The position numbers and the translations under genes were made by a program. The notes beneath the pieces are model-generated. The model saw only the letters and a list, made by a program, of their open reading frames with translations, was not told the origin of the DNA and searched no databases. Positions 1 to 8,965 of a DNA stretch of 8,965 nt are shown here, piece by piece. Each line of letters opens with the position of its first letter. The stretch's first letter is position 1. Origin of the DNA: T1SED10-198M sp003554345 [NCBI: Candidatus Sumerlaeota bacterium] (GTDB lineage: Bacteria; Sumerlaeota; T1SED10-198M); NCBI GenBank assembly GCA_003554345.1, contig PWGE01000018.1:1-8965 (forward strand), written 5' to 3'.

Positions 1-3000
1 CTTATCCTGATCATCAGCATGGTATTGGTTGGGATACACATAATAGGGGTCGTTCATTTCATCCAGAAGCATGGGGTCGTCCATTCTGCTCTGGAGGAAA
101 AGCATATGGTCGGGGAAATAACCTCCTGGATTGGAGGAGCACCAACTATCAAACAAGAATTCTCCCTCTTTTAAAGGGTATGGTGAAGGATGAAGAATAG
201 TAAAATCAACTTCTTCAATCTCAAAATATTGAGGCAAAAGAGGTGTAAGGTTCCATAAATCAGTATTACCTTCCAGATAAAGACGTTCCTTGAGATGGTT
301 AAGAGTGGTGAGAGGTGATATATCGGTAATCATGTTGTAGCGGGCATTTAGATTTTGCAGTTTACTTAAGTATTGCAACCCTGTGATGTCCTGCAGGTAA
401 TTATTGCGTATGGAAAGAAAGGTTAATTCCTTCAGATACCTAATCGGCGTATTATAACCAATCTCTGTGAGAAGATTATCTCGCAGGCTCAGGTACCACA
501 ATTTATCTAAATCAGCCAGAAGGTGGAACTGCATGTTTTGAAGGATTGTATTGTTAATGCCATTATTGCGTAAATTGAGTTCCTGCAGGTTCGTAGCATA
601 CTGGAGTCCTTCCAGGTTTCTAACGGCATAATTGCGCAGGTCAAGCACTTCTAAACTATTCATATCGCTGAGCAAAACAGGTTCATCAGTTTTTTTATCC
701 AGTAACCGGTAGATTTCGTGGCGAAGATAATAGTCCGGAATATTAATTATGGGGTTCTCACTGTCAGTTTCAAATAAAGCAGTTATCTCTCTATCCTCAG
801 AAAGTGTCAATGAAATTTTTACATCTTCTTTTTCAGTGCCTTGCCAACTGACAAAACGATAGCCGGGCCGCGGTATGGCTTCCAATTCTACAGGGATTTC
901 CTTAAAGTAGATCCCACTCCACGGATAGGGTGATTCAGTTACCCCCTGGGTTTCGGGGTGAAGCTTAACTGTATTAATGCGTATATAACCTTTTTCCATC
1001 GAGTTTACATGAAGAGTGATGGTAACCTCTTCTTCGAGGTTGAAATGCTTCTTAAGATGCTGGCGCTGGTAAGCGGGACGCTTATCAGCAAATTCCAGCC
1101 ATCTGTTAAGATAAAACTGATTTGCCACACTGCGGTTCCACCGTTGTCTGTGTTCATCCATTTCCCTTTCTAAAATTGCATACTCGTGCTCGATAATGGG
1201 TTTTATTCTATCTGAAGAAAAAGTAGTGTTTATATGGTCTGCAAAACGGTTGATAAAGAGATATCTAAAGGTATTGCTTTCCAGCATGTTACGTAAAAGC
1301 TCTGTTCTGGCTCCTCTTCTGAAAGAATACCTGTCACCTTCTCCGTGTGGGTCCAATGCGTTGGCAAGTAAATCATACTCATAACTGCGAGCGGCATTGT
1401 CAAAGTCCCAGACCATAATACGCCATTTGCCATCGTGGTATGGTTCATCAGAGGTTTCTCGGACCCTCCAGTAACGAAAATGTCTGTGTCCATACCAGTC
1501 GACATTACCAAAGTAGAGAAACATGACCAGGTAATCAATATAACTGTTAATGCACACCTTTTGCTCAAGCTTTTCAAAGTTTTCTGGTATGTTCAAATCA
1601 TTTTCCAGAGCAAAGGAATGGAATTGATTGTAAAACAAAACGTCTTCGGGAAGACCGGCTTCCAGTTTATAACTGCCTATTGAAAGGTCGGGGGCGTCGG
1701 GTCCTCTTAAGATGATAATATTATCAGGATCGGTTTCATAGTTGTATGCTAAATGGTATTCATCAAGACGGTCTCTGACATTAATCAATCCCCAGTATTC
1801 GCCATTAATGAAGTGGAGAAAGCGGCGGCATCTCTGGACCCCGACCTCTGTGTTTTCCATTATCAAATGTGCCAGGGAATCGTTAAGAAAGTTATACCAG
1901 TTTCCTCCCTGTCTGAAAAGTATTCTTTTAAATTTTTTCAGTGGCTCAGAGCTACCAGGTTTTGTAGAGTCAGGAAAGAATTGATATAACATATCATCCT
2001 TTCCGTTGAGTCCGTCATACTCATCACGCGCATAGAGACGGAAAGCCTTTTGAGCTCTCATTCGTCCGAAACCACCATGTATACGCATTCCTACATTCTG
2101 GGATAATGAGTGTGTCCCATTGTCTTCAAAAAGTTCAAAATGTACAGGACGCTCCCACTCTCTTCCGGTCTGTCCGAAATTTCCTGCATGGGTAACATTC
2201 TGGCTTTCTGTTCCCCCTTCAAGAAAATATTGCTCTCCAGGCACATAAATTCCCTTTTCATATCCAAACAGGTTCTGGGGATCTGTTATAAAGGAAGCAA
2301 TGGGTAGACTGTAACGGTTTTCTCCGGCAGGGTCTATAAAATAAGAACCGGAAGCTATATCACTTGCAAAACTGCCATCAGTATTGACTTTATATGCTTT
2401 AGCTCTTACAACTGTTCCTTTGAAAATATTGTCGGCCGGTGGTCCCCAGTAGGGTTCATCTTCTACTCCCCGATAAGTGGTTATGATGTTGCTTAAGTCG
2501 TTATTTTCTTCGGACCGATTGGTAATTTCCAGGCTGTTTTCATAGACATACGTGTTGTTGAGACGGGGTATGTTTTGACTTACCTCCCATTCATCGAAAA
2601 AAAAATAATTTATCAGGTATTCTTTTCCTTTATTATCCAAATTATCAATATCAGGAGAGGAGCCATCAAGAGTATAAAGTACAGTCACTGCAGGGTCAGG
2701 ATGACTGATTGTAAGATTGACATTTTCCGTATAAAATCCTGGAGACAAAGAGAAAACAGGAGGCTGTATCTTCTGTGTCCCATAATCGTTACTAAAACCG
2801 GGTGTGGTTCCTCCATATTCTATGTTGAAAAACCCTCCATACCGACGCCACAGGTCTCTGTTTTTTTTCTGTCGACCATAAGATTGGTCTCTCTGGAGAG
2901 GTAGAGCCGGAATGAAATCTATTGTGGTCTTTCCATCCGGAGCCGTTAAAATAAGGGGCTCTCCTTCTCGATTGATGCGAAAATTTGTATGATGTTTTTC

Positions 3001-4002
3001 CCCAACCATGTCTTTTCCCGAGGCAAAAACAACCAGGTATTCACCAGGGAAAAGAATATTCATGTGCGGGCTTGAAGTTGCTGATACATCAGGAAACCTC
3101 CATCGAAGCGGGTTATCCACCTGGTCAGAAAGGTAATAACCAGTTAGATCAATGGAATGGTTGGTTGCATTGTATAATTCTAACCACGGTGGGAAATTCC
3201 CTTCTTCATCTGACAGAGAAATACCGTTGGTTGCCATGAACTCATTTATTAATAATGGGAGATTTCGTTCTTCAACAACGGGTAATATAATAAAGTCTAC
3301 GTCTTCTATATGTTCATAATATTGTGACATTGCCGTGAAATTTGTGGAATGGTTGCCTCCTACATGCAATCTACTGCCCTGTCCGGATATATCAGGCAAG
3401 TTCTGGAGAGGACTGAAATCGGTGATTTGATTGTCACGAATATTGAGATTTTTCAGATTGGAAAGTGACGATAGTACGGAAATATCTTTTATTTTATTAT
3501 TTCTTAAGGTTAATTCCCGCAAGCGAGTGATGTTTTCCAAAACAGAAATGTCAATTACTGAATTGCTGTGTATACTCAGATCTTCCAGCAGAAGAATATT
3601 GCCTATAGCTTCAATGTTTTGTATCCTGTTATTGCGGAGAGATAATTGCCTTAAGTTGACGAGGTCGCTGAGGGGGGTTATGTCCTCAATGTGATTATTT
3701 CGCAGATGAAGTTTTTTCAGTTGTTCCAGGGATGATAGGGGAGATATATCCTGTATTCGGTTGTCGCGTAAATTGAGATAGCGTAAATTCGTCAGGTTCT
3801 CAATACCTTCGAGAGATTTAATGCCGCACCCTCGTGCTTCTAAAGAGGTGAGTTGAAGCAGGGCTTCTTTGTGAAGAGGACCGATAGGGATGCGTAATTC
3901 ATGGCGAATTCTCGCTTCCAGATAGGGATCTGCCAACATGATTTCTTGTCCCATAATTTTGAGAATGCTTAAAATTAAAAGGAAAATTATAATTTTTTTC
4001 AC
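1..4002 (-). CDS. Large exported LRR / lamin-tail / CotH-kinase mosaic protein (3' end cut by window)
   Basis: The frame is open for 1334 codons from GTG at 4002 to base 1, with no stop, so the C-terminus is missing. The start gives MKKIIIFLLILSIL, a clear signal peptide; the next in-frame ATG (3954) would remove it. No good Shine-Dalgarno precedes the GTG. Domains by residue: internalin-type leucine-rich repeats about 51-217; lamin-tail domain about 250-404 (INEFMATN near 252); chitobiase-C-terminal-like domain about 410-560 (YTLDGSSPD); CotH kinase domain about 630-985; InlB-repeat-like domain about 994-1080 (PGYRFVSW); second LRR block about 1114-1260; unassigned tail to 1334. CotH hallmarks are K652, NGEYWG at 733-738, NVDW at 833-836 and WDFD at 865-868. 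CotH of Bacillus is an atypical protein kinase of spore-coat proteins; related domains are common in secreted bacterial proteins. Kinase activity here, and its substrate, are inference. The gene is divergent from the pel-like operon. I see no frameshift. Confidence 0.9.
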   Translation of the reverse strand, partial: MKKIIIFLLILSILKIMGQEIMLADPYLEARIRHELRIPIGPLHKEALLQLTSLEARGCGIKSLEGIENLTNLRYLNLRDNRIQDISPLSSLEQLKKLHLRNNHIEDITPLSDLVNLRQLSLRNNRIQNIEAIGNILLLEDLSIHSNSVIDISVLENITRLRELTLRNNKIKDISVLSSLSNLKNLNIRDNQITDFSPLQNLPDISGQGSRLHVGGNHSTNFTAMSQYYEHIEDVDFIILPVVEERNLPLLINEFMATNGISLSDEEGNFPPWLELYNATNHSIDLTGYYLSDQVDNPLRWRFPDVSATSSPHMNILFPGEYLVVFASGKDMVGEKHHTNFRINREGEPLILTAPDGKTTIDFIPALPLQRDQSYGRQKKNRDLWRRYGGFFNIEYGGTTPGFSNDYGTQKIQPPVFSLSPGFYTENVNLTISHPDPAVTVLYTLDGSSPDIDNLDNKGKEYLINYFFFDEWEVSQNIPRLNNTYVYENSLEITNRSEENNDLSNIITTYRGVEDEPYWGPPADNIFKGTVVRAKAYKVNTDGSFASDIASGSYFIDPAGENRYSLPIASFITDPQNLFGYEKGIYVPGEQYFLEGGTESQNVTHAGNFGQTGREWERPVHFELFEDNGTHSLSQNVGMRIHGGFGRMRAQKAFRLYARDEYDGLNGKDDMLYQFFPDSTKPGSSEPLKKFKRILFRQGGNWYNFLNDSLAHLIMENTEVGVQRCRRFLHFINGEYWGLINVRDRLDEYHLAYNYETDPDNIIILRGPDAPDLSIGSYKLEAGLPEDVLFYNQFHSFALENDLNIPENFEKLEQKVCINSYIDYLVMFLYFGNVDWYGHRHFRYWRVRETSDEPYHDGKWRIMVWDFDNAARSYEYDLLANALDPHGEGDRYSFRRGARTELLRNMLESNTFRYLFINRFADHINTTFSSDRIKPIIEHEYAILEREMDEHRQRWNRSVANQFYLNRWLEFADKRPAYQRQHLKKHFNLEEEVTITLHVNSMEKGYIRINTVKLHPETQGVTESPYPWSGIYFKEIPVELEAIPRPGYRFVSWQGTEKEDVKISLTLSEDREITALFETDSENPIINIPDYYLRHEIYRLLDKKTDEPVLLSDMNSLEVLDLRNYAVRNLEGLQYATNLQELNLRNNGINNTILQNMQFHLLADLDKLWYLSLRDNLLTEIGYNTPIRYLKELTFLSIRNNYLQDITGLQYLSKLQNLNARYNMITDISPLTTLNHLKERLYLEGNTDLWNLTPLLPQYFEIEEVDFTILHPSPYPLKEGEFLFDSWCSSNPGGYFPDHMLFLQSRMDDPMLLDEMNDPYYVYPNQYHADDQDK
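223..663 (-). repeat. Second leucine-rich repeat block, after the CotH domain
   Basis: Residues about 1114-1260 contain five to six repeats of the same class (SLEVLDLRN, NLQELNLRNN, KLWYLSLRDN, ELTFLSIRNN, KLQNLNARYN). Two of them are lengthened between the LRNN element and the next leucine pair. A cap-like segment with the motif PDYYLRHEIYRLL (about residues 1085-1097) precedes the block and matches the style of the N-terminal cap. This indicates a second self-contained LRR module rather than a continuation of the first. Confidence 0.85.
3352..3852 (-). repeat. N-terminal leucine-rich repeat block of the CotH protein
   Basis: Residues about 51-217 contain seven complete repeats of roughly 22 residues plus a partial eighth. 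They follow the pattern LxxLxLRxNxIxDIsxL, as in NLRYLNLRDN, QLKKLHLRNN, NLRQLSLRNN and RLRELTLRNN. This is the bacterial internalin type. The stretch before it (residues 22-50, DPYLEARIRHEL) resembles the helical cap that precedes such repeats in internalin-like proteins. The block normally forms a curved protein- or glycan-binding surface; the ligand is unknown. Confidence 0.88.
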
Positions 4003-4035
4003 ATGAGCAACTCTATAATAATAATATATACAAAA

Positions 4036-4041
4036 ATTATA
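4036..4041 (-). promoter_or_regulatory. Candidate -10 element for the CotH-type gene
   Basis: Read on the minus strand, this is a perfect TATAAT. It would place transcription start near 4029 and give a leader of about 27 nt before the GTG at 4002. No convincing -35 hexamer sits 16-18 bp upstream, where the sequence is a CTTTCT-like pyrimidine run. The whole region is so AT-rich that a chance match is likely. It is listed as the best candidate only. Confidence 0.25.
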
Positions 4042-4139
4042 TAAAATTATCTGACAAAAGAAAGGGGCTAAAACAGATAAAAAATCAGTCATATATTTAT
4101 CCAACAAAAAGTGGTTACTAAAAAATAACAGTCAAATTT

Positions 4140-4196
4140 AACAATTTATTAAAAATAGATTGAAAAAATTAAAAAATTGTTGTATATTTATTGTTG
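4140..4196. promoter_or_regulatory. Inverted and direct repeats around the pel-like promoter (possible operator)
   Basis: Two repeats overlap the candidate promoter. One is a perfect 8-bp inverted repeat, AACAATTT at 4140-4147 with AAATTGTT at 4174-4181; its arms bracket the -35 hexamer. The other is a perfect 7-bp direct repeat, ATTGTTG at 4176-4182 and 4190-4196; its copies flank the -10 hexamer. Such placement is typical of regulator sites, but the DNA is very AT-rich and no known operator consensus is recognised. Confidence 0.3.
4160..4188 (+). promoter_or_regulatory. Candidate sigma-70-type promoter for the pel-like operon
   Basis: TTGAAA (4160-4165) and TATATT (4183-4188) each match the consensus at five of six positions and are separated by exactly 17 bp. 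Predicted transcription start is near 4195, giving a leader of only about 20 nt that contains little more than the ribosome binding site. It is the best-spaced promoter in the intergenic region and points into the pelA-like gene. AT-richness raises the chance of a coincidental match, but position and spacing both fit. Confidence 0.55.
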
Positions 4197-4197
4197 C

Positions 4198-4204
4198 AAG
4201 GAGG
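4198..4204 (+). promoter_or_regulatory. Strong Shine-Dalgarno of the pelA-like gene
   Basis: AAGGAGG lies 11 nt before the ATG at 4216. It is a full-strength ribosome binding site and fixes this start, which also gives a proper signal peptide. The spacer contains the 8-bp palindrome CTAGCTAG (4205-4212). The divergent GTG-started gene has no comparable site. Confidence 0.75.
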
Positions 4205-4215
4205 CTAGCTAGATA

Positions 4216-6261
4216 ATGAAGCATATAGTATACCTGTTTTTAATTACAAACATTTTTCTATCTGTTTGTTTGGGAGGACAGGTGCTTGCCCTGGTTGACA
4301 AAGAAGATCATCTTGAACCTATCTATAATAACAGTATTGCCTATAACCTTGAGGTTATTTTCAATTACTGGGGACTTGACCTGACATATCATTTTCTTGA
4401 CCAGGATTTACCAGATGATAAAGAGATGCAAAAATATGTGGCTGTTTTAACTTACTTTCATAATGAAAGAGTTCCTGAACCTGAGAAGTTACTTAATTGG
4501 CTTATCAGTCAAAGCCGTCAGAAAAAAAAACTGTTTATATGGGGCGACATTCCCCGGGTTTCTCATGACGGAACTCAAAGGGTATCCGAAATACGTGTGG
4601 CTGAACTATATGATATATTTGGGATTCAAGCAGGAACTGACGACCCGGAATCTCCGCTCCGACTTGTGATAAGGGAAGATGTGGATGCTTCTCTGGTAAA
4701 CTTTGAACGTGATATTTCTAAAGATAGATTCAGTGTTGAACATCTTGTATCACAAGAGGGAGCTGAGGCTGATTTTCAGATGATGTATGGTGTGAATCAG
4801 GATGATTCTGCCTGGGAAACCGTTATTGCTTCCTGGGGAACACAGGGCTCATATATTCAATCTGACTTTAGTTTATTCCGCCGTTGGATTGGAGGAAGAG
4901 GGAGTTCCCAGCTTTATCTCGATTTATTCAGAATTGTGGGAGAAGTCTTTGATTTGTATCATGCTCCTGTTCCTGATCTTACCACCTTAATGGGGCGGCG
5001 GGTGTTGATGTGTCATATTGATGGTGACGGAGTTAATAATCTGAGCTATGATCGAAGTCCTTTGTTATGTGGACATGTTATTAAGGAAGAAGTCCTGGAG
5101 CAATATCCTCAGGTGTTGTTTGGAGTGTCTTTTATCGTGGACACAATAAGTACGGGGTGGGATGGCACAACTGAACTAAGTGATCTGGCACGGGAAATCT
5201 TCCTGTTGGAGAATGTTGAACCGGCCAGTCATACTTTTCATCATCCATTAGATTGGCGGAATGAGATCTATTATGAAGAGGCTGAAGTCACGTTTGATAG
5301 TTACCGGGAAGTGGTTGAATCAATTGAGTACTTAAATCATTACTATGCTCCGGAAGATAAGCCGGTTCATATTCTGTACTGGTCAGGAAACTGTTTGCCT
5401 GCAGAGAATGATATTGCGCATCTTTATGAAAAAGGCTATTATAATCTGAATGGCGGAAGAAATGTGACAGATCCATTGTTTCCCAGTGTTACCCAGTTAA
5501 GTCCGAAAGGGAGAAAGATTGGTCCTTACCGGCAAATATTTGCTCCTATGAATAATGAAATGCTTTATACAAATTTATGGTCAGGACCTTTCTGGGGTTA
5601 TAAACAATTGATAAGATGCTTGAAGGTGGCAGATGGACGGTACCGTCTTAAACCGATCAACCTGTATTTTCATTTTTATTCTGCGGAGTGTCATGATGCC
5701 TTAAATGCCCTTACTCATAATATTGAATGGGCGGTGTCTCAAGCACCCATTTCAATTTATCCCGTACATTATTGTCAGAAGGTGGCAGAATTTTTCCGTT
5801 TAGAAATAGAGGGCCTGGGCAATAATAGCTATCATGTTCAGGGATTGCAAACCATTCAATCTCTCCGCGTTGAAAGTGGTTTGATTCCGAACCTTGACGA
5901 TAAACGTATTTTAGGGTTTTCTCAGGAAAACGGAAAAACCTGGATCCATCTTCAGCCTGATGCCGGAGAACTGGATATACAGCTGGCTAATGAGCAGCCA
6001 TCTGTGCCCTATCTGGTTGATGCAAATATTTATAGCATTCATTGTACAGATAGGAATAAGGAGATGCTTGAACTACTGGTTTCAGCTCCTCTTGATTCTT
6101 TTGAAAGTCAGATGATATTCAGGGTTCCTTCTGCCCGGAAGTGGGAAATATATATTGATGGGAAAAAAGCTGAAAACATATCATCACTTTCGGAGGACAG
6201 AATAAGCTGGAAAGGTCTGCTACACAGGAAGGAAAGCACAGTGTTGCTTCAACTGAAATGA
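4216..6261 (+). CDS. pelA: PelA-like periplasmic polysaccharide deacetylase, lacking the hydrolase domain
   Basis: The protein has 681 residues. Residues 1-21 form a signal peptide; C18 in LSVC is a poor lipobox, so a soluble periplasmic form is more likely. Residues 23 to about 230 look like the Rossmann-type domain found in PelA. The deacetylase core carries HIDGDG (D269, D271) and SHTFHHP (H339, H343), the Asp-x-Asp / His-x3-His metal site. The 70-residue gap between D269 and H339 matches that reported for Pseudomonas PelA (D528, H600). Further PelA-like stretches are YWSGNC and YFHFYSAECH. Residues about 535-681 form a beta-rich tail with QSLRV and WIHL motifs. Pseudomonas PelA is about 948 residues because it also has an N-terminal glycoside hydrolase domain; nothing like that fits here. 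Family role: partial de-N-acetylation of Pel, needed for export and biofilm. The next gene overlaps by 4 bp and looks like PelB. Orthology is inferred from motifs and context. Confidence 0.82.
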   Translation: MKHIVYLFLITNIFLSVCLGGQVLALVDKEDHLEPIYNNSIAYNLEVIFNYWGLDLTYHFLDQDLPDDKEMQKYVAVLTYFHNERVPEPEKLLNWLISQSRQKKKLFIWGDIPRVSHDGTQRVSEIRVAELYDIFGIQAGTDDPESPLRLVIREDVDASLVNFERDISKDRFSVEHLVSQEGAEADFQMMYGVNQDDSAWETVIASWGTQGSYIQSDFSLFRRWIGGRGSSQLYLDLFRIVGEVFDLYHAPVPDLTTLMGRRVLMCHIDGDGVNNLSYDRSPLLCGHVIKEEVLEQYPQVLFGVSFIVDTISTGWDGTTELSDLAREIFLLENVEPASHTFHHPLDWRNEIYYEEAEVTFDSYREVVESIEYLNHYYAPEDKPVHILYWSGNCLPAENDIAHLYEKGYYNLNGGRNVTDPLFPSVTQLSPKGRKIGPYRQIFAPMNNEMLYTNLWSGPFWGYKQLIRCLKVADGRYRLKPINLYFHFYSAECHDALNALTHNIEWAVSQAPISIYPVHYCQKVAEFFRLEIEGLGNNSYHVQGLQTIQSLRVESGLIPNLDDKRILGFSQENGKTWIHLQPDAGELDIQLANEQPSVPYLVDANIYSIHCTDRNKEMLELLVSAPLDSFESQMIFRVPSARKWEIYIDGKKAENISSLSEDRISWKGLLHRKESTVLLQLK

Positions 6262-8965
6262 AGAAGATGCTGGTACTATTATTCTTTTTATCTGCCGTGG
6301 TTTTGGTGGTTATTTTTATGCTTATTCCCTCGGATACCTACATGGAATATCTCTTCACAGATTCAGAAAGCAGGGAAAGAGAGTTGGAAGTTTTACTGGA
6401 CATTTCACGTGAGGAAGGATGGACTCCTGGATTGGCAGAAGATATTCTTTGGTTAGCTGCTGAGCTGGGAAATGAGGAGGTTGTTCAGGCTGCTATGCGT
6501 GAAGTGCTGGAAATGTCATATGATAATGAAGAAGCCCAGATGCTGATATATCGTTATTTGCAAAGAGAAAATGAACTGATGAAACTGCCTGAATTTTATG
6601 AGAAGCACTGGCAGAATACATCGGCAGATGAAATATTAAGAGAGCTGGTATCTCTTTATTCTACCCTGGAAAAACCTGATAAGCAACTGGAGGTGTTGTA
6701 TATCCTCAGGGAACGAGCCCCCTATGATGAAGAGATTCTTCTCATGATTTCTGATATTTATTCTATACAGGAAGCGTATGAACCCCAGCTTGAAGTCATA
6801 ACTCGCCTGTGGGAGATATATCCGGAAAAACCGGAGTACTGGCAGGCAAAATCGGATCTTCTTTTGCAAACTGGACGGCATAACAGGCTGGCAGATCTAC
6901 TGGAAAAGAAGTACAATGCTGAAATGCATTTAACAGTGCAGCAACTGGATTTTTTGCTTGGCCATAGGTGGGAAGTACTAGATTCACAGAAGAAGATGGA
7001 TTTATCTCTTTACTTACTGGAAGAAAAACCTCACAAGGGTAAAGAGTGGCTTCAGGCTCTGTTTAGCGAGTCATTACAGGAGGGGGATTTTAAGATGGCG
7101 GAAATGGCCAAAAAACATCTTGATAGGGAGCCGGAAATCAGCATTCAATTGTTTAAAGGTTATATCTGGCATCGAGAATTTGAGCAAGCCAGGGAGTTAG
7201 GGGAGCCTCTTTTTGAAAACATGGAAACCCAGGACCAGGGCCTCTATCTTAATCTGCTGGTATGGCTAAACCAACTGCCTGCCATTCTTCCTTTTCTGCT
7301 GAAAATGGAAAAGGAAGAAATACCACCAGATATCATAGACATCCTGGTAAGAGGTGCCAGGCAGATTGAAGATACTTCACAGTTAGAAAAACTTCTCTTC
7401 GACATCGTCGAAGAAAGTGACCCACATGAATACCTCAAGTCCGCTGCTTTTTTAGCCTTTCATCGTGGGGATGGAGAGCAGGCTATCTGGTATCTGCAGC
7501 AATGGTTCCAGGAAAGAGGTGTTGTATCTGAGGACGATCGATTTATTATGACTTACATGCTGGAATATGAGGGAAAGCTTAATCAGATCATTGGCTTTTA
7601 CGAAAAACACCTTGAGAAAGGCACCTTTGAAGACCCAGTGTCGGCTCTGGAAGCATTGGATTACTATTATCATGTATCACAGCAATATGAAGAGGCTGAA
7701 AACTTTCTTTTACAATGGGAGTCAGATCCATTTTTAGAAAAAGAAGTTAATTCGCTGAGGATAAAGTATTTGAGGCTTAGTGGTGACTGGCAAAGACTGG
7801 CTTCACTTATGATGAGTACTCTGCAGGATACTCCGGGGGAACCAGGGGAGTATTATCAGCTCTTACAAGCAGCCCGATGGTCGGAGGATACAGAAGCAAT
7901 GGCATTTGCCCTGGAAAATTTGTGGTCACTGGATCCAGAGCGTTATTTCTGGGTTTGTTATACCGAGTGGGAGAAAGCGCAAAATATAGACCGCTTACGA
8001 CAATTGATGGATGAGCTCATGGTTCTGGATGAACCGGAGAAACCTTATATGAACTGGTATGTTATGATAATCCGGGATTTGCCTCAGGAAGAACGAGCAG
8101 AAAGGTTAACATATTTAATCGGTCGTTCTTCTCAACCTGACTATCTTTTGCGAGCTGGCAGATATATGATGGTTGCTGGCTATACTTCCTATGCTGCAAG
8201 AGCTTTTGGGGCAGTTCTCGAACAACGTCCCCATGAACCTGAAGCACTTAGACGAATGGGTATTATAAAAGCCTGGGAAAATGACCTGGAGGGTGCACGA
8301 GGATATCTTGAAAAGGCATACTCTTATGAGCCGGATAATTATGAAACCATGTATTATTTAGCACAGTCTCGATGGTATCAGGATGAAAAAAAAAGAGCAT
8401 TACCTCTTTACTATACAATATGGAACGATTTGCATTTAAAAGAGGATTTGGATACGAGTCAGCAGCTCATTCTGGCCAAGTCGGCGGGAAGAATTGGAAG
8501 GGTACCACAGGCGAGAGTATGGTTTTCCGAACTGCTGGATGAAAACCCGGAGAACATACACATTCATGCGGATTATCTCGAAATGTTATACGATATGGGG
8601 GCTTACACTGAGGCATATGATATCTTTGTGTCGCATGAAGTGGTACGAAACAGCAAACATATTAGAATTCGCAGGGCATATGTGAGGGTTTTGTTGAGGT
8701 TGGGAGACACGGTAGGTGCCATGAGAGAAATTAACCACTTGATTTCAATGTATCCTGAAGAGGCGGGTCTTTGGACGGATAAGGGGTATGTTTTCAGTCG
8801 GCTTGGGATGAATGACAGGGCTATGGCTGCCTTTCAGAAATCATTATCAATGCAGGATAATAAGGATATATCAAGCTTATGGCGTTCCCTTTATCGCCAG
8901 GAAGGTAACTATGTGGGCACCAGTTGGGAACAGACCCGTAAGAGTGATGGAGAGGACCGTTTGGA
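6258..8965 (+). CDS. pelB: PelB-like TPR scaffold and outer-membrane porin (3' end cut by window)
   Basis: The frame is open from ATG 6258 to the right edge (902 codons). The start overlaps the upstream stop as ATGA and has no well-placed Shine-Dalgarno, so translational coupling is likely; M4 at 6267 is an alternative start. Residues about 4-24 (LVLLFFLSAVVLVVIF) are one transmembrane helix. The rest is nearly all helical. Repeats are degenerate through about residue 640 and more canonical TPRs from about 641 to 871, for example YTSYAARAFGAVLEQRPHEP. From about residue 882 the sequence turns beta-like and polar (GNYVGTSWEQ), as expected at the first barrel strand. Pseudomonas PelB is 1193 residues: inner-membrane helix, TPR scaffold, then a C-terminal barrel starting near this point. 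PelB binds PelA through its TPRs and exports Pel. TPR sequence alone is not diagnostic, so the call leans on layout and on the pelA-like neighbour. Confidence 0.77.
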   Translation, partial: MKKMLVLLFFLSAVVLVVIFMLIPSDTYMEYLFTDSESRERELEVLLDISREEGWTPGLAEDILWLAAELGNEEVVQAAMREVLEMSYDNEEAQMLIYRYLQRENELMKLPEFYEKHWQNTSADEILRELVSLYSTLEKPDKQLEVLYILRERAPYDEEILLMISDIYSIQEAYEPQLEVITRLWEIYPEKPEYWQAKSDLLLQTGRHNRLADLLEKKYNAEMHLTVQQLDFLLGHRWEVLDSQKKMDLSLYLLEEKPHKGKEWLQALFSESLQEGDFKMAEMAKKHLDREPEISIQLFKGYIWHREFEQARELGEPLFENMETQDQGLYLNLLVWLNQLPAILPFLLKMEKEEIPPDIIDILVRGARQIEDTSQLEKLLFDIVEESDPHEYLKSAAFLAFHRGDGEQAIWYLQQWFQERGVVSEDDRFIMTYMLEYEGKLNQIIGFYEKHLEKGTFEDPVSALEALDYYYHVSQQYEEAENFLLQWESDPFLEKEVNSLRIKYLRLSGDWQRLASLMMSTLQDTPGEPGEYYQLLQAARWSEDTEAMAFALENLWSLDPERYFWVCYTEWEKAQNIDRLRQLMDELMVLDEPEKPYMNWYVMIIRDLPQEERAERLTYLIGRSSQPDYLLRAGRYMMVAGYTSYAARAFGAVLEQRPHEPEALRRMGIIKAWENDLEGARGYLEKAYSYEPDNYETMYYLAQSRWYQDEKKRALPLYYTIWNDLHLKEDLDTSQQLILAKSAGRIGRVPQARVWFSELLDENPENIHIHADYLEMLYDMGAYTEAYDIFVSHEVVRNSKHIRIRRAYVRVLLRLGDTVGAMREINHLISMYPEEAGLWTDKGYVFSRLGMNDRAMAAFQKSLSMQDNKDISSLWRSLYRQEGNYVGTSWEQTRKSDGEDRL

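What the first reader, a model, noticed from the sequence alone, without database searches (positions are those of the whole stretch)
1..4002. CotH kinase domain embedded between two leucine-rich repeat modules
One polypeptide joins internalin-like repeats, a lamin-tail domain, a chitobiase-like domain, a CotH kinase domain, an InlB-like repeat and a second LRR block. The conserved CotH elements (K652, NGEYWG, NVDW, WDFD) are present, so catalysis is possible. A secreted kinase carrying its own recognition surfaces could phosphorylate surface or matrix proteins.
Basis: partly seen in the sequence, partly recalled or inferred. Interest (0 to 1): 0.6.

Follow-up and report, generated by a model that had tools for sequence, protein, structure and literature searches.

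The report
Secreted CotH kinase beside Pel operon
An uncultured bacterium encodes a secreted kinase-like protein with arginine-lined repeat arms right next to its genes for making the biofilm sugar Pel, which hints that the kinase modifies or regulates the biofilm matrix.

Summary
Minus strand 4002..1 encodes signal peptide, internalin-type LRR, lamin-tail domain, chitobiase-like domain, CotH kinase, InlB-like repeat and second LRR; the contig end cuts off about 160 residues. The CotH model matches Bacillus cereus CotH (Z 33.4, rmsd 2.6 over 334) and keeps K652, D835, D866 and D868; one of two adenine-stacking aromatics is not kept.

Not mentioned in the finding: divergently beside it starts a Gram-negative type pel operon, pelA and pelB in the window, then, through a 10-base in-frame contig overlap, pelB end, pelC, pelD-like, pelE-like and pelF. 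CotH genes beside pel are known from Gram-positives, where one deletion lowered Pel; here the kinase bears LRRs.

Further: the LRRs carry arginine at one fixed position (10 of 11 repeats; 49 of 68 in LRR-CotH proteins; 6 of 189 in control LRR proteins), and in other genomes 7 of 7 N-terminal-LRR CotH loci with flanks encode VTC (polyphosphate polymerase) and DUF4956; the window shows none. LRR-CotH is not one clade (AU p 2e-5).

Best reading: a secreted accessory kinase of the Pel matrix whose LRRs hold an anionic ligand. Activity, substrate and ligand are inferred.

The parts
3931..4002 (-). GTG start and signal peptide (VKK-hydrophobic core-LA)
   Evidence: signal peptide judged by eye
3388..3855 (-). 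N-terminal internalin-type LRR block, 7 regular 22-residue repeats; position 7 of LxxLxLRxNxI is Arg in 6 and His in 1
   Evidence: model (pLDDT 82.7); InlB LRR match E about 1e-16, rmsd 1.0
2917..3255 (-). lamin tail domain
   Evidence: Pfam LTD E 1.7e-14
2650..2745 (-). chitobiase/Fn3-associated type domain, weak
   Evidence: CHB_HEX_C_1 E 1.1e-4, just over cut-off
973..2310 (-). CotH kinase domain as modelled (Pfam part 1069-2085)
   Evidence: Pfam E 1.5e-32; model pLDDT 92.9; 5jd9 Z 33.4
2047..2049 (-).
1498..1500 (-). D835 of NVDW, aligns with the Asp of NFD in B. cereus CotH (taken as B. subtilis D228)
   Evidence: Asp in 96 of 102, His in 6
1399..1410 (-). W865-D866-F-D868; aligns with WDYD of B. 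cereus CotH
   Evidence: D866 102 of 102, D868 95 of 102, W865 14 of 102 (Tyr 36, Phe 26)
763..972 (-). InlB B-repeat type domain (Flg_new_2)
   Evidence: E 2.9e-6
238..690 (-). C-terminal LRR block, 4 regex-matched repeats, all 4 with arginine at position 7
1..180 (-). start of the C-terminal tail domain, cut by the contig end
   Evidence: aligned with tails of C174 and C285; a like tail on C125
4003..4215 (.). divergent intergenic region; + strand TTGAAA-17-TATATT at 4160-4188 and AGGAGG before pelA
   Evidence: consensus match only
4216..6261 (+). pelA deacetylase homologue; no room for a separate hydrolase domain seen
   Evidence: PDB PelA 9cgy E 1.1e-46 over residues 234-604; no Pfam or NCBIfam match
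6258..8965 (+). pelB, TPR part; continues in frame on contig C122 (barrel-like end, pelC, pelD-like, pelE-like, pelF)

Best explanation
It is a secreted CotH-family atypical kinase that serves as an accessory of the adjoining Pel exopolysaccharide system. The protein leaves the cytoplasm by its signal peptide (inferred). Its LRR and lamin-tail modules hold it in the matrix or at the outer surface; the arginine row on the LRRs binds a phosphate-rich or otherwise anionic ligand (inferred). The CotH domain, whose fold and catalytic residues are kept (shown by model and alignment), transfers phosphate to a matrix protein or to the polymer and so tunes Pel retention or yield (inferred from genetics in Streptococcus).
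For: Fold: 5jd9 Z 33.4, rmsd 2.6, 334 aligned. Catalytic residues kept in the window and in 100, 96, 102 and 95 of 102 sequences for K652, D835, D866, D868. pelA homologue starts 213 bases away, divergent; TPR gene next; in-frame continuation to C122 (10-base overlap, the only end match of 7-59 bases among the 7 contigs tested) with pelC (9h80 E 6.8e-6), TM-GAF-GGDEF and TM-HEAT/TPR proteins, pelF (DUF3492 E 7.1e-83). Precedent: CotH, polyP polymerase, DUF4956 and DUF4832 genes contiguous with Gram-positive pel (PMC7112168, passages); deletion of the secreted CotH gene SIR_1594 lowered Pel and cut aggregation by over half in one medium, without abolishing it (PMC12345266, passages). Arginine row: 10 of 11 window repeats, 49 of 68 over LRR-CotH proteins against 6 of 189 in 26 LRR frames without CotH and 2 of 11 in the own phylum. 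In other genomes, N-terminal-LRR CotH genes lie with VTC and DUF4956 in 7 of 7 loci with flank. The LRR-CotH union is not one clade: AU p 2.4e-5.
Against: PelA was found in 1 of 61 genomes, the own one, in 0 of 6 genomes with LRR-CotH, as one weak partial match in 296 spirochaete genomes (E 8e-7), and beside 0 of the 80 CotH loci, so the CotH-Pel adjacency in this lineage is a single case. The Tyr142 position of the adenine sandwich is not aromatic, and W865 is Trp in only 14 of 102. The LRR blocks are not basic overall (18 basic, 19 acidic; 16 basic, 24 acidic), so the arginines may be paired with acidic neighbours. No VTC or DUF4956 was found in the window, nor on the six other contigs of the genome fetched, C277 with 2.8 kb before its LRR gene included. 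No PelG was found in the MAG (87.7% complete).
Confidence: 0.45

Rival explanations
1. General surface kinase or modifier of this lineage whose placement beside pel is accidental; it acts on other envelope proteins.
For: Three further CotH matches in the genome; on their short contigs (3.3-4.4 kb) no pel gene was seen. CotH in 25 of 40 genomes of the phylum, PelA in 1 of 61 genomes, the own one. The 65% relative L039 has RND efflux genes upstream (by eye) and no PelA match in its genome.
Against: With about 5 CotH genes among perhaps 2,400 genes (estimated from genome size), adjacency to pelA by chance is well under 1% (rough, made after the fact); CotH-pel adjacency is known independently.
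Confidence: 0.25
2. Adhesin or pseudokinase: the CotH fold is only a scaffold and the LRRs bind a partner.
For: The adenine-sandwich Tyr position is Ile, Leu, Val or Met in most of 102 sequences and the Trp is rare; an abstract says fungal CotH mediates invasion by the GRP78 ligand (PMC12211043, listing).
Against: Invariant or nearly invariant Lys and Asp residues over 102 divergent sequences; W865 kept in the window.
Confidence: 0.15
3. The enzyme phosphorylates sugar (Pel or another glycan) and not protein.
For: Genetic link to Pel here and in Gram-positives; the wider fold group has lipid kinases and a Fam20 with sugar (PI4K Z 12.4, 5xoo Z 9.0).
Against: B. subtilis CotH acts on the Ser-rich coat protein CotB (PMC7821199, abstract in listing, and one passage).
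Confidence: 0.15

Closest known systems
Bacillus CotH (B. cereus 5jd9/5jda; B. subtilis CotH acting on CotB)
   Same: fold over the whole domain (Z 33.4), NxD and WDxD elements
   Different: 14% identity; Tyr of adenine sandwich not kept; secreted multidomain protein, no sporulation context seen
SIR_1594 type CotH-FN3 protein of the Streptococcus intermedius pel locus, and the cotH-PPP-DUF4956-DUF4832 accessory set of Gram-positive pel clusters
   Same: secreted CotH gene beside pel
   Different: here a Gram-negative type set with pelB and pelC, LRR and LTD modules, no VTC or DUF4956 seen on the side that is held
LTD-CHB/Fn3-CotH surface proteins of Bacteroidota and others
   Same: core architecture; LTD in 73 of 91 CotH frames of the 80 loci (own profile)
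   Different: LRR in 8 of 91, in none convincingly on both sides (some frames are cut)
Internalins (InlA, InlB)
   Same: 22-residue LRR fold, rmsd 1.0 to InlB
   Different: Arg (once His) at position 7 of each repeat counted; joined to a kinase; wall anchor not tested, C-terminus missing

Membership tests
CotH kinase family (PF08757) | profile match over curated cut-off | tested here: met
   113.8 bits, cut-off 23.8
CotH kinase family (PF08757) | CotH fold | tested here: met
   5jd9 Z 33.4, rmsd 2.6, 334 aligned
CotH kinase family (PF08757) | catalytic/metal Asp residues (NxD and WDxD) | tested here: met
   naming of D228 = NxD rests on a 23-residue spacing and recall
CotH kinase family (PF08757) | Tyr/Trp adenine sandwich | tested here: inconclusive
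   Trp kept, Tyr position Ile/Leu; weak alignment there
CotH kinase family (PF08757) | phosphoryl transfer | not testable with these tools
   needs assay
Pel biosynthesis locus, Gram-negative type | PelA deacetylase | tested here: met
   9cgy E 1.1e-46
Pel biosynthesis locus, Gram-negative type | PelB TPR plus outer-membrane barrel | tested here: inconclusive
   TPR by Pfam, no PelB chain among PDB matches; barrel end by eye, no Pfam match
Pel biosynthesis locus, Gram-negative type | PelC lipoprotein | tested here: met
   9h80 PelC E 6.8e-6
Pel biosynthesis locus, Gram-negative type | PelD and PelE | tested here: inconclusive
   GAF-GGDEF and HEAT/TPR matches, TM parts by eye, in the right order (order recalled)
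Pel biosynthesis locus, Gram-negative type | PelF glycosyltransferase | tested here: met
   DUF3492 E 7.1e-83 and group 1 glycosyltransferase; that DUF3492 marks PelF is recalled
Pel biosynthesis locus, Gram-negative type | PelG | tested here: inconclusive
   not found in an 87.7% complete MAG; C122 ends inside pelF
CotH-PPP-DUF4956 accessory set | VTC and DUF4956 genes adjoining cotH | tested here: inconclusive
   none on the pelA side or on six other fetched contigs; the other side is beyond the contig end; whole own genome not searched

The most novel reading that the evidence does not exclude
A polyphosphate-served extracellular kinase: polyphosphate made by VTC proteins and passed out with DUF4956 is gripped by the arginine row of the LRRs and serves the CotH domain as phosphate donor or as guide, so that matrix components are phosphorylated outside the cell, where ATP is scarce. 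LRR arms of this type have joined CotH more than once.
Probability: 0.1. Interest if true: 0.85.

Novelty: new variant of a known kind. Interest (0 to 1): 0.55.

Why it matters
How CotH-like genes influence Pel is left open in two papers (PMC7112168 and PMC12345266, passages). This locus extends the link to a Gram-negative type pel operon and adds a feature that can be tested: LRR arms with a fixed arginine row, which in other genomes recur beside polyphosphate polymerase genes. It would also bear on how kinases outside the cell obtain phosphate.

Tried and rejected
Rejected: assembly artefact (paralogues on other contigs). Rejected: LRRs as a general habit of this genome; its 13 LRR_4 matches lie only in C444, C215, C174 and C277, the last a cut LRR gene whose further domains are not seen. 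Rejected: one origin of LRR-CotH. No Rfam match in the window at gathering scores. No terminator-like site in 3900-4300; promoter matches only by consensus. phmmer with the CotH domain alone found no CotH in PDB; the 76-row profile did. Paper searches, open-licence PMC only: CotH with Pel polysaccharide, 3 of 3 rows seen; CotH with LRR or lamin tail, 20 of 50 listed; CotH/DUF4956/VTC/polyphosphate polymerase, 7 of 7; DUF4956, 3 of 3; four mixed terms, 12 of 1,312 listed; CotH kinase with lamin tail domain, none. Nothing on an LRR-CotH protein showed in the rows and passages seen.

Limits: the 102 sequences are the window, 91 frames from the 80 loci and 10 from genomes of the phylum. The 80 loci were picked by two peptide patterns around NGEYW and QNVGMRIH, so conservation there is biased; K652, D835, D866, D868 lie outside them. 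Repeats within a protein and related proteins are not independent, so the Fisher p (4e-30) overstates. Of 13 LRR-CotH proteins, C125 gave no repeat; C277 and C125 may be ends of C174 or C215. Control: of 30 loci, 1 was left out because it is the L057 protein and 3 gave no frame with two repeats; 'without CotH' means no NG.[YF]WG in the stretch held. In one search, L207 and L222 gave no frame with two repeats; two weaker LRR frames without CotH had some arginines (L223 4 of 14, L224 2 of 10), and the CotH protein of L198 gave 0 of 2 by the strict pattern, though 6 Arg and 1 His of 8 when the Asn is not asked for. VTC and DUF4956 profiles were built from two spirochaete loci and may miss distant forms. 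Frames marked as without LRR may be cut. The AU test named its group after the LRRs were seen.
Full report
Observation. The window is the whole contig G000:C444 of a 2.55 Mb, 454-contig, 87.7% complete genome. The end of the protein, about 160 residues by comparison with C174 and C285, is not in the window.

The same genome holds paralogues: C215 has LRR, LTD with an inserted LamG-like domain, CHB and the start of CotH; C174 has CotH, InlB-like repeat, LRRs and a tail with a stop; C285 has CotH, InlB-like repeat and tail without LRR. C125 and C277 carry further ends. So the combination is real and repeated, but only the window contig shows LRRs on both sides.

Kinase. An alignment of 76 CotH domains as a profile finds B. 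cereus CotH 5jd9 (E 1e-5), which single-sequence search did not. The model of residues 565-1010 has pLDDT 92.9 and matches 5jd9 with Z 33.4, rmsd 2.6 over 334 residues; the next rows are PI4K II, CtkA and HipA at Z 12.4 and less. NVDW aligns with NFD and WDFD with WDYD of 5jd9. The D228Q variant of B. subtilis CotH is called catalytically inactive (PMC7821199, one passage); that D228 is the Asp of NxD is my inference from the spacing of 23 residues to the WDxD Asp, which I recall as D251. A review says Tyr142 and Trp245 sandwich the adenine (PMC12189002, passages); by the alignment the Trp is W865 here and the Tyr position is Ile/Leu. Over 102 sequences K652 is kept in 100, D835 in 96, D866 in 102, D868 in 95, but W865 in 14, with Tyr 36 and Phe 26.

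Pel operon. The divergent gene at 4216 is a PelA deacetylase homologue (9cgy, E 1.1e-46) and the next a TPR protein (no PelB chain among its PDB matches). DUF3492, the PelF domain (recalled), was found on C122 (E 2.1e-83). C122 begins with the 10 bases that end C444, and the frame of the TPR gene runs on exactly in the open frame 3-791 of C122; among 168 oriented end pairs of 7 contigs this join and its mirror were the only matches of 7 to 59 bases. C122 then encodes a PelC (9h80, E 6.8e-6), a GAF-GGDEF protein, a HEAT/TPR protein, both with membrane segments by eye, and PelF. PelG was not found, but C122 ends inside pelF. The order pelABCDEF equals that of Pseudomonas (recalled).

CotH and Pel in print. 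PMC7112168 (passages) reports cotH, polyphosphate polymerase, DUF4956 and DUF4832 genes contiguous with pelDEADAFG in streptococci and clostridia and suggests regulation by phosphorylation. PMC12345266 (passages) reports that deleting the secreted CotH protein SIR_1594 lowers Pel; aggregation fell by over half in one medium and little in another. PMC2879425 (passages) lists VTC, CotH, HEAT and glycosyltransferase genes together in a Clostridium perfringens locus. So the link itself is known; a Gram-negative type pel operon with an LRR-CotH partner did not show in the rows and passages I saw.

Relatives. The best named relative is a Candidatus Latescibacterota MAG, 65% over CotH, with LTD-CotH-InlB-LRR, no N-terminal LRR, and a contig end inside the LRRs. 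Among 91 CotH frames of the 80 loci, 73 have LTD and 8 have LRR by my own profiles; the 8 come from bins titled Latescibacterota, Anaerolineae, Brevefilum, Spirochaetaceae (3), WWE3 and Clostridia. Of 104 CotH domains in the tree, the 12 with LRR need 6 changes, at least 3 forced by well-supported branches, and one clade is rejected (AU p 2.4e-5).

Arginine row. In LxxLxLRxNxI, position 7 is Arg in 10 and His in 1 of 11 window repeats, and Arg in 49 of 68 repeats of LRR-CotH proteins. In 26 LRR frames without CotH from Spirochaetota genomes it is Arg in 6 of 189, in the own phylum in 2 of 11. The model of the N-terminal block (pLDDT 82.7) has strands every 22 residues with this residue two places after each strand, which in LRR geometry is the edge of the concave face (general knowledge, not measured). 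Fold search gives internalin B (rmsd 1.0). The profile of these LRRs searched in 296 spirochaete genomes gave three matches under E 1e-50, all in CotH proteins, one of them the L057 protein that is in the profile; none of the 25 weaker frames tested had CotH in the stretch held. Exceptions are told under Tried and rejected.

VTC and DUF4956. Seven loci of other genomes with N-terminal LRR-CotH and flanking DNA (L054, L057, L069, L083, L111, L227, L228) all encode DUF4956 and VTC next to it. L055 has no flank; L039 has neither upstream; L068 (LRR after CotH) has a DUF4956 piece. The window has neither on its pelA side, nor have C215 (0.8 kb held upstream) and C277 (2.8 kb). Of 72 loci without LRR 8 have VTC or DUF4956. 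With 3 kb on both sides: 5 of 5 against 3 of 27, p 2.8e-4.

Mechanism. Shown: domain order, CotH fold by model, kept catalytic residues, arginine row, pel context, VTC linkage in relatives. Inferred: export, activity, substrate, ligand, effect on Pel. I hold the Pel-accessory kinase most likely (0.45), then a general surface kinase beside pel by accident (0.25).

Noticed in passing
L008 (G000:C215) 3-3161: A Laminin_G_3 domain lies inserted inside the lamin tail domain of a CotH paralogue (E 2.4e-16).
   Followed up: no
L041, L042, L078: Bacteroidales loci with two or three CotH genes side by side plus VTC and DUF4956.
   Followed up: partly
L161 (G000:C122) 1365-2771: PelD-like protein whose C-terminal GGDEF is only weakly matched (E 3e-6) and looks degenerate by eye, as expected of a c-di-GMP receptor.
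   Followed up: no
L006 (G000:C285) 2507-3329: A UbiA-like decaprenyl-phosphate phosphoribosyltransferase follows a CotH gene without LRR (by eye).
   Followed up: no
L162 (G322:C87): Weak partial match to the N-terminal quarter of the PelA homologue in one of 296 spirochaete genomes (E 8e-7).
   Followed up: no
window 3900-4300: More promoter-like matches (9) than in shuffles (mean 2.5) around the AT-rich divergent region.
   Followed up: partly
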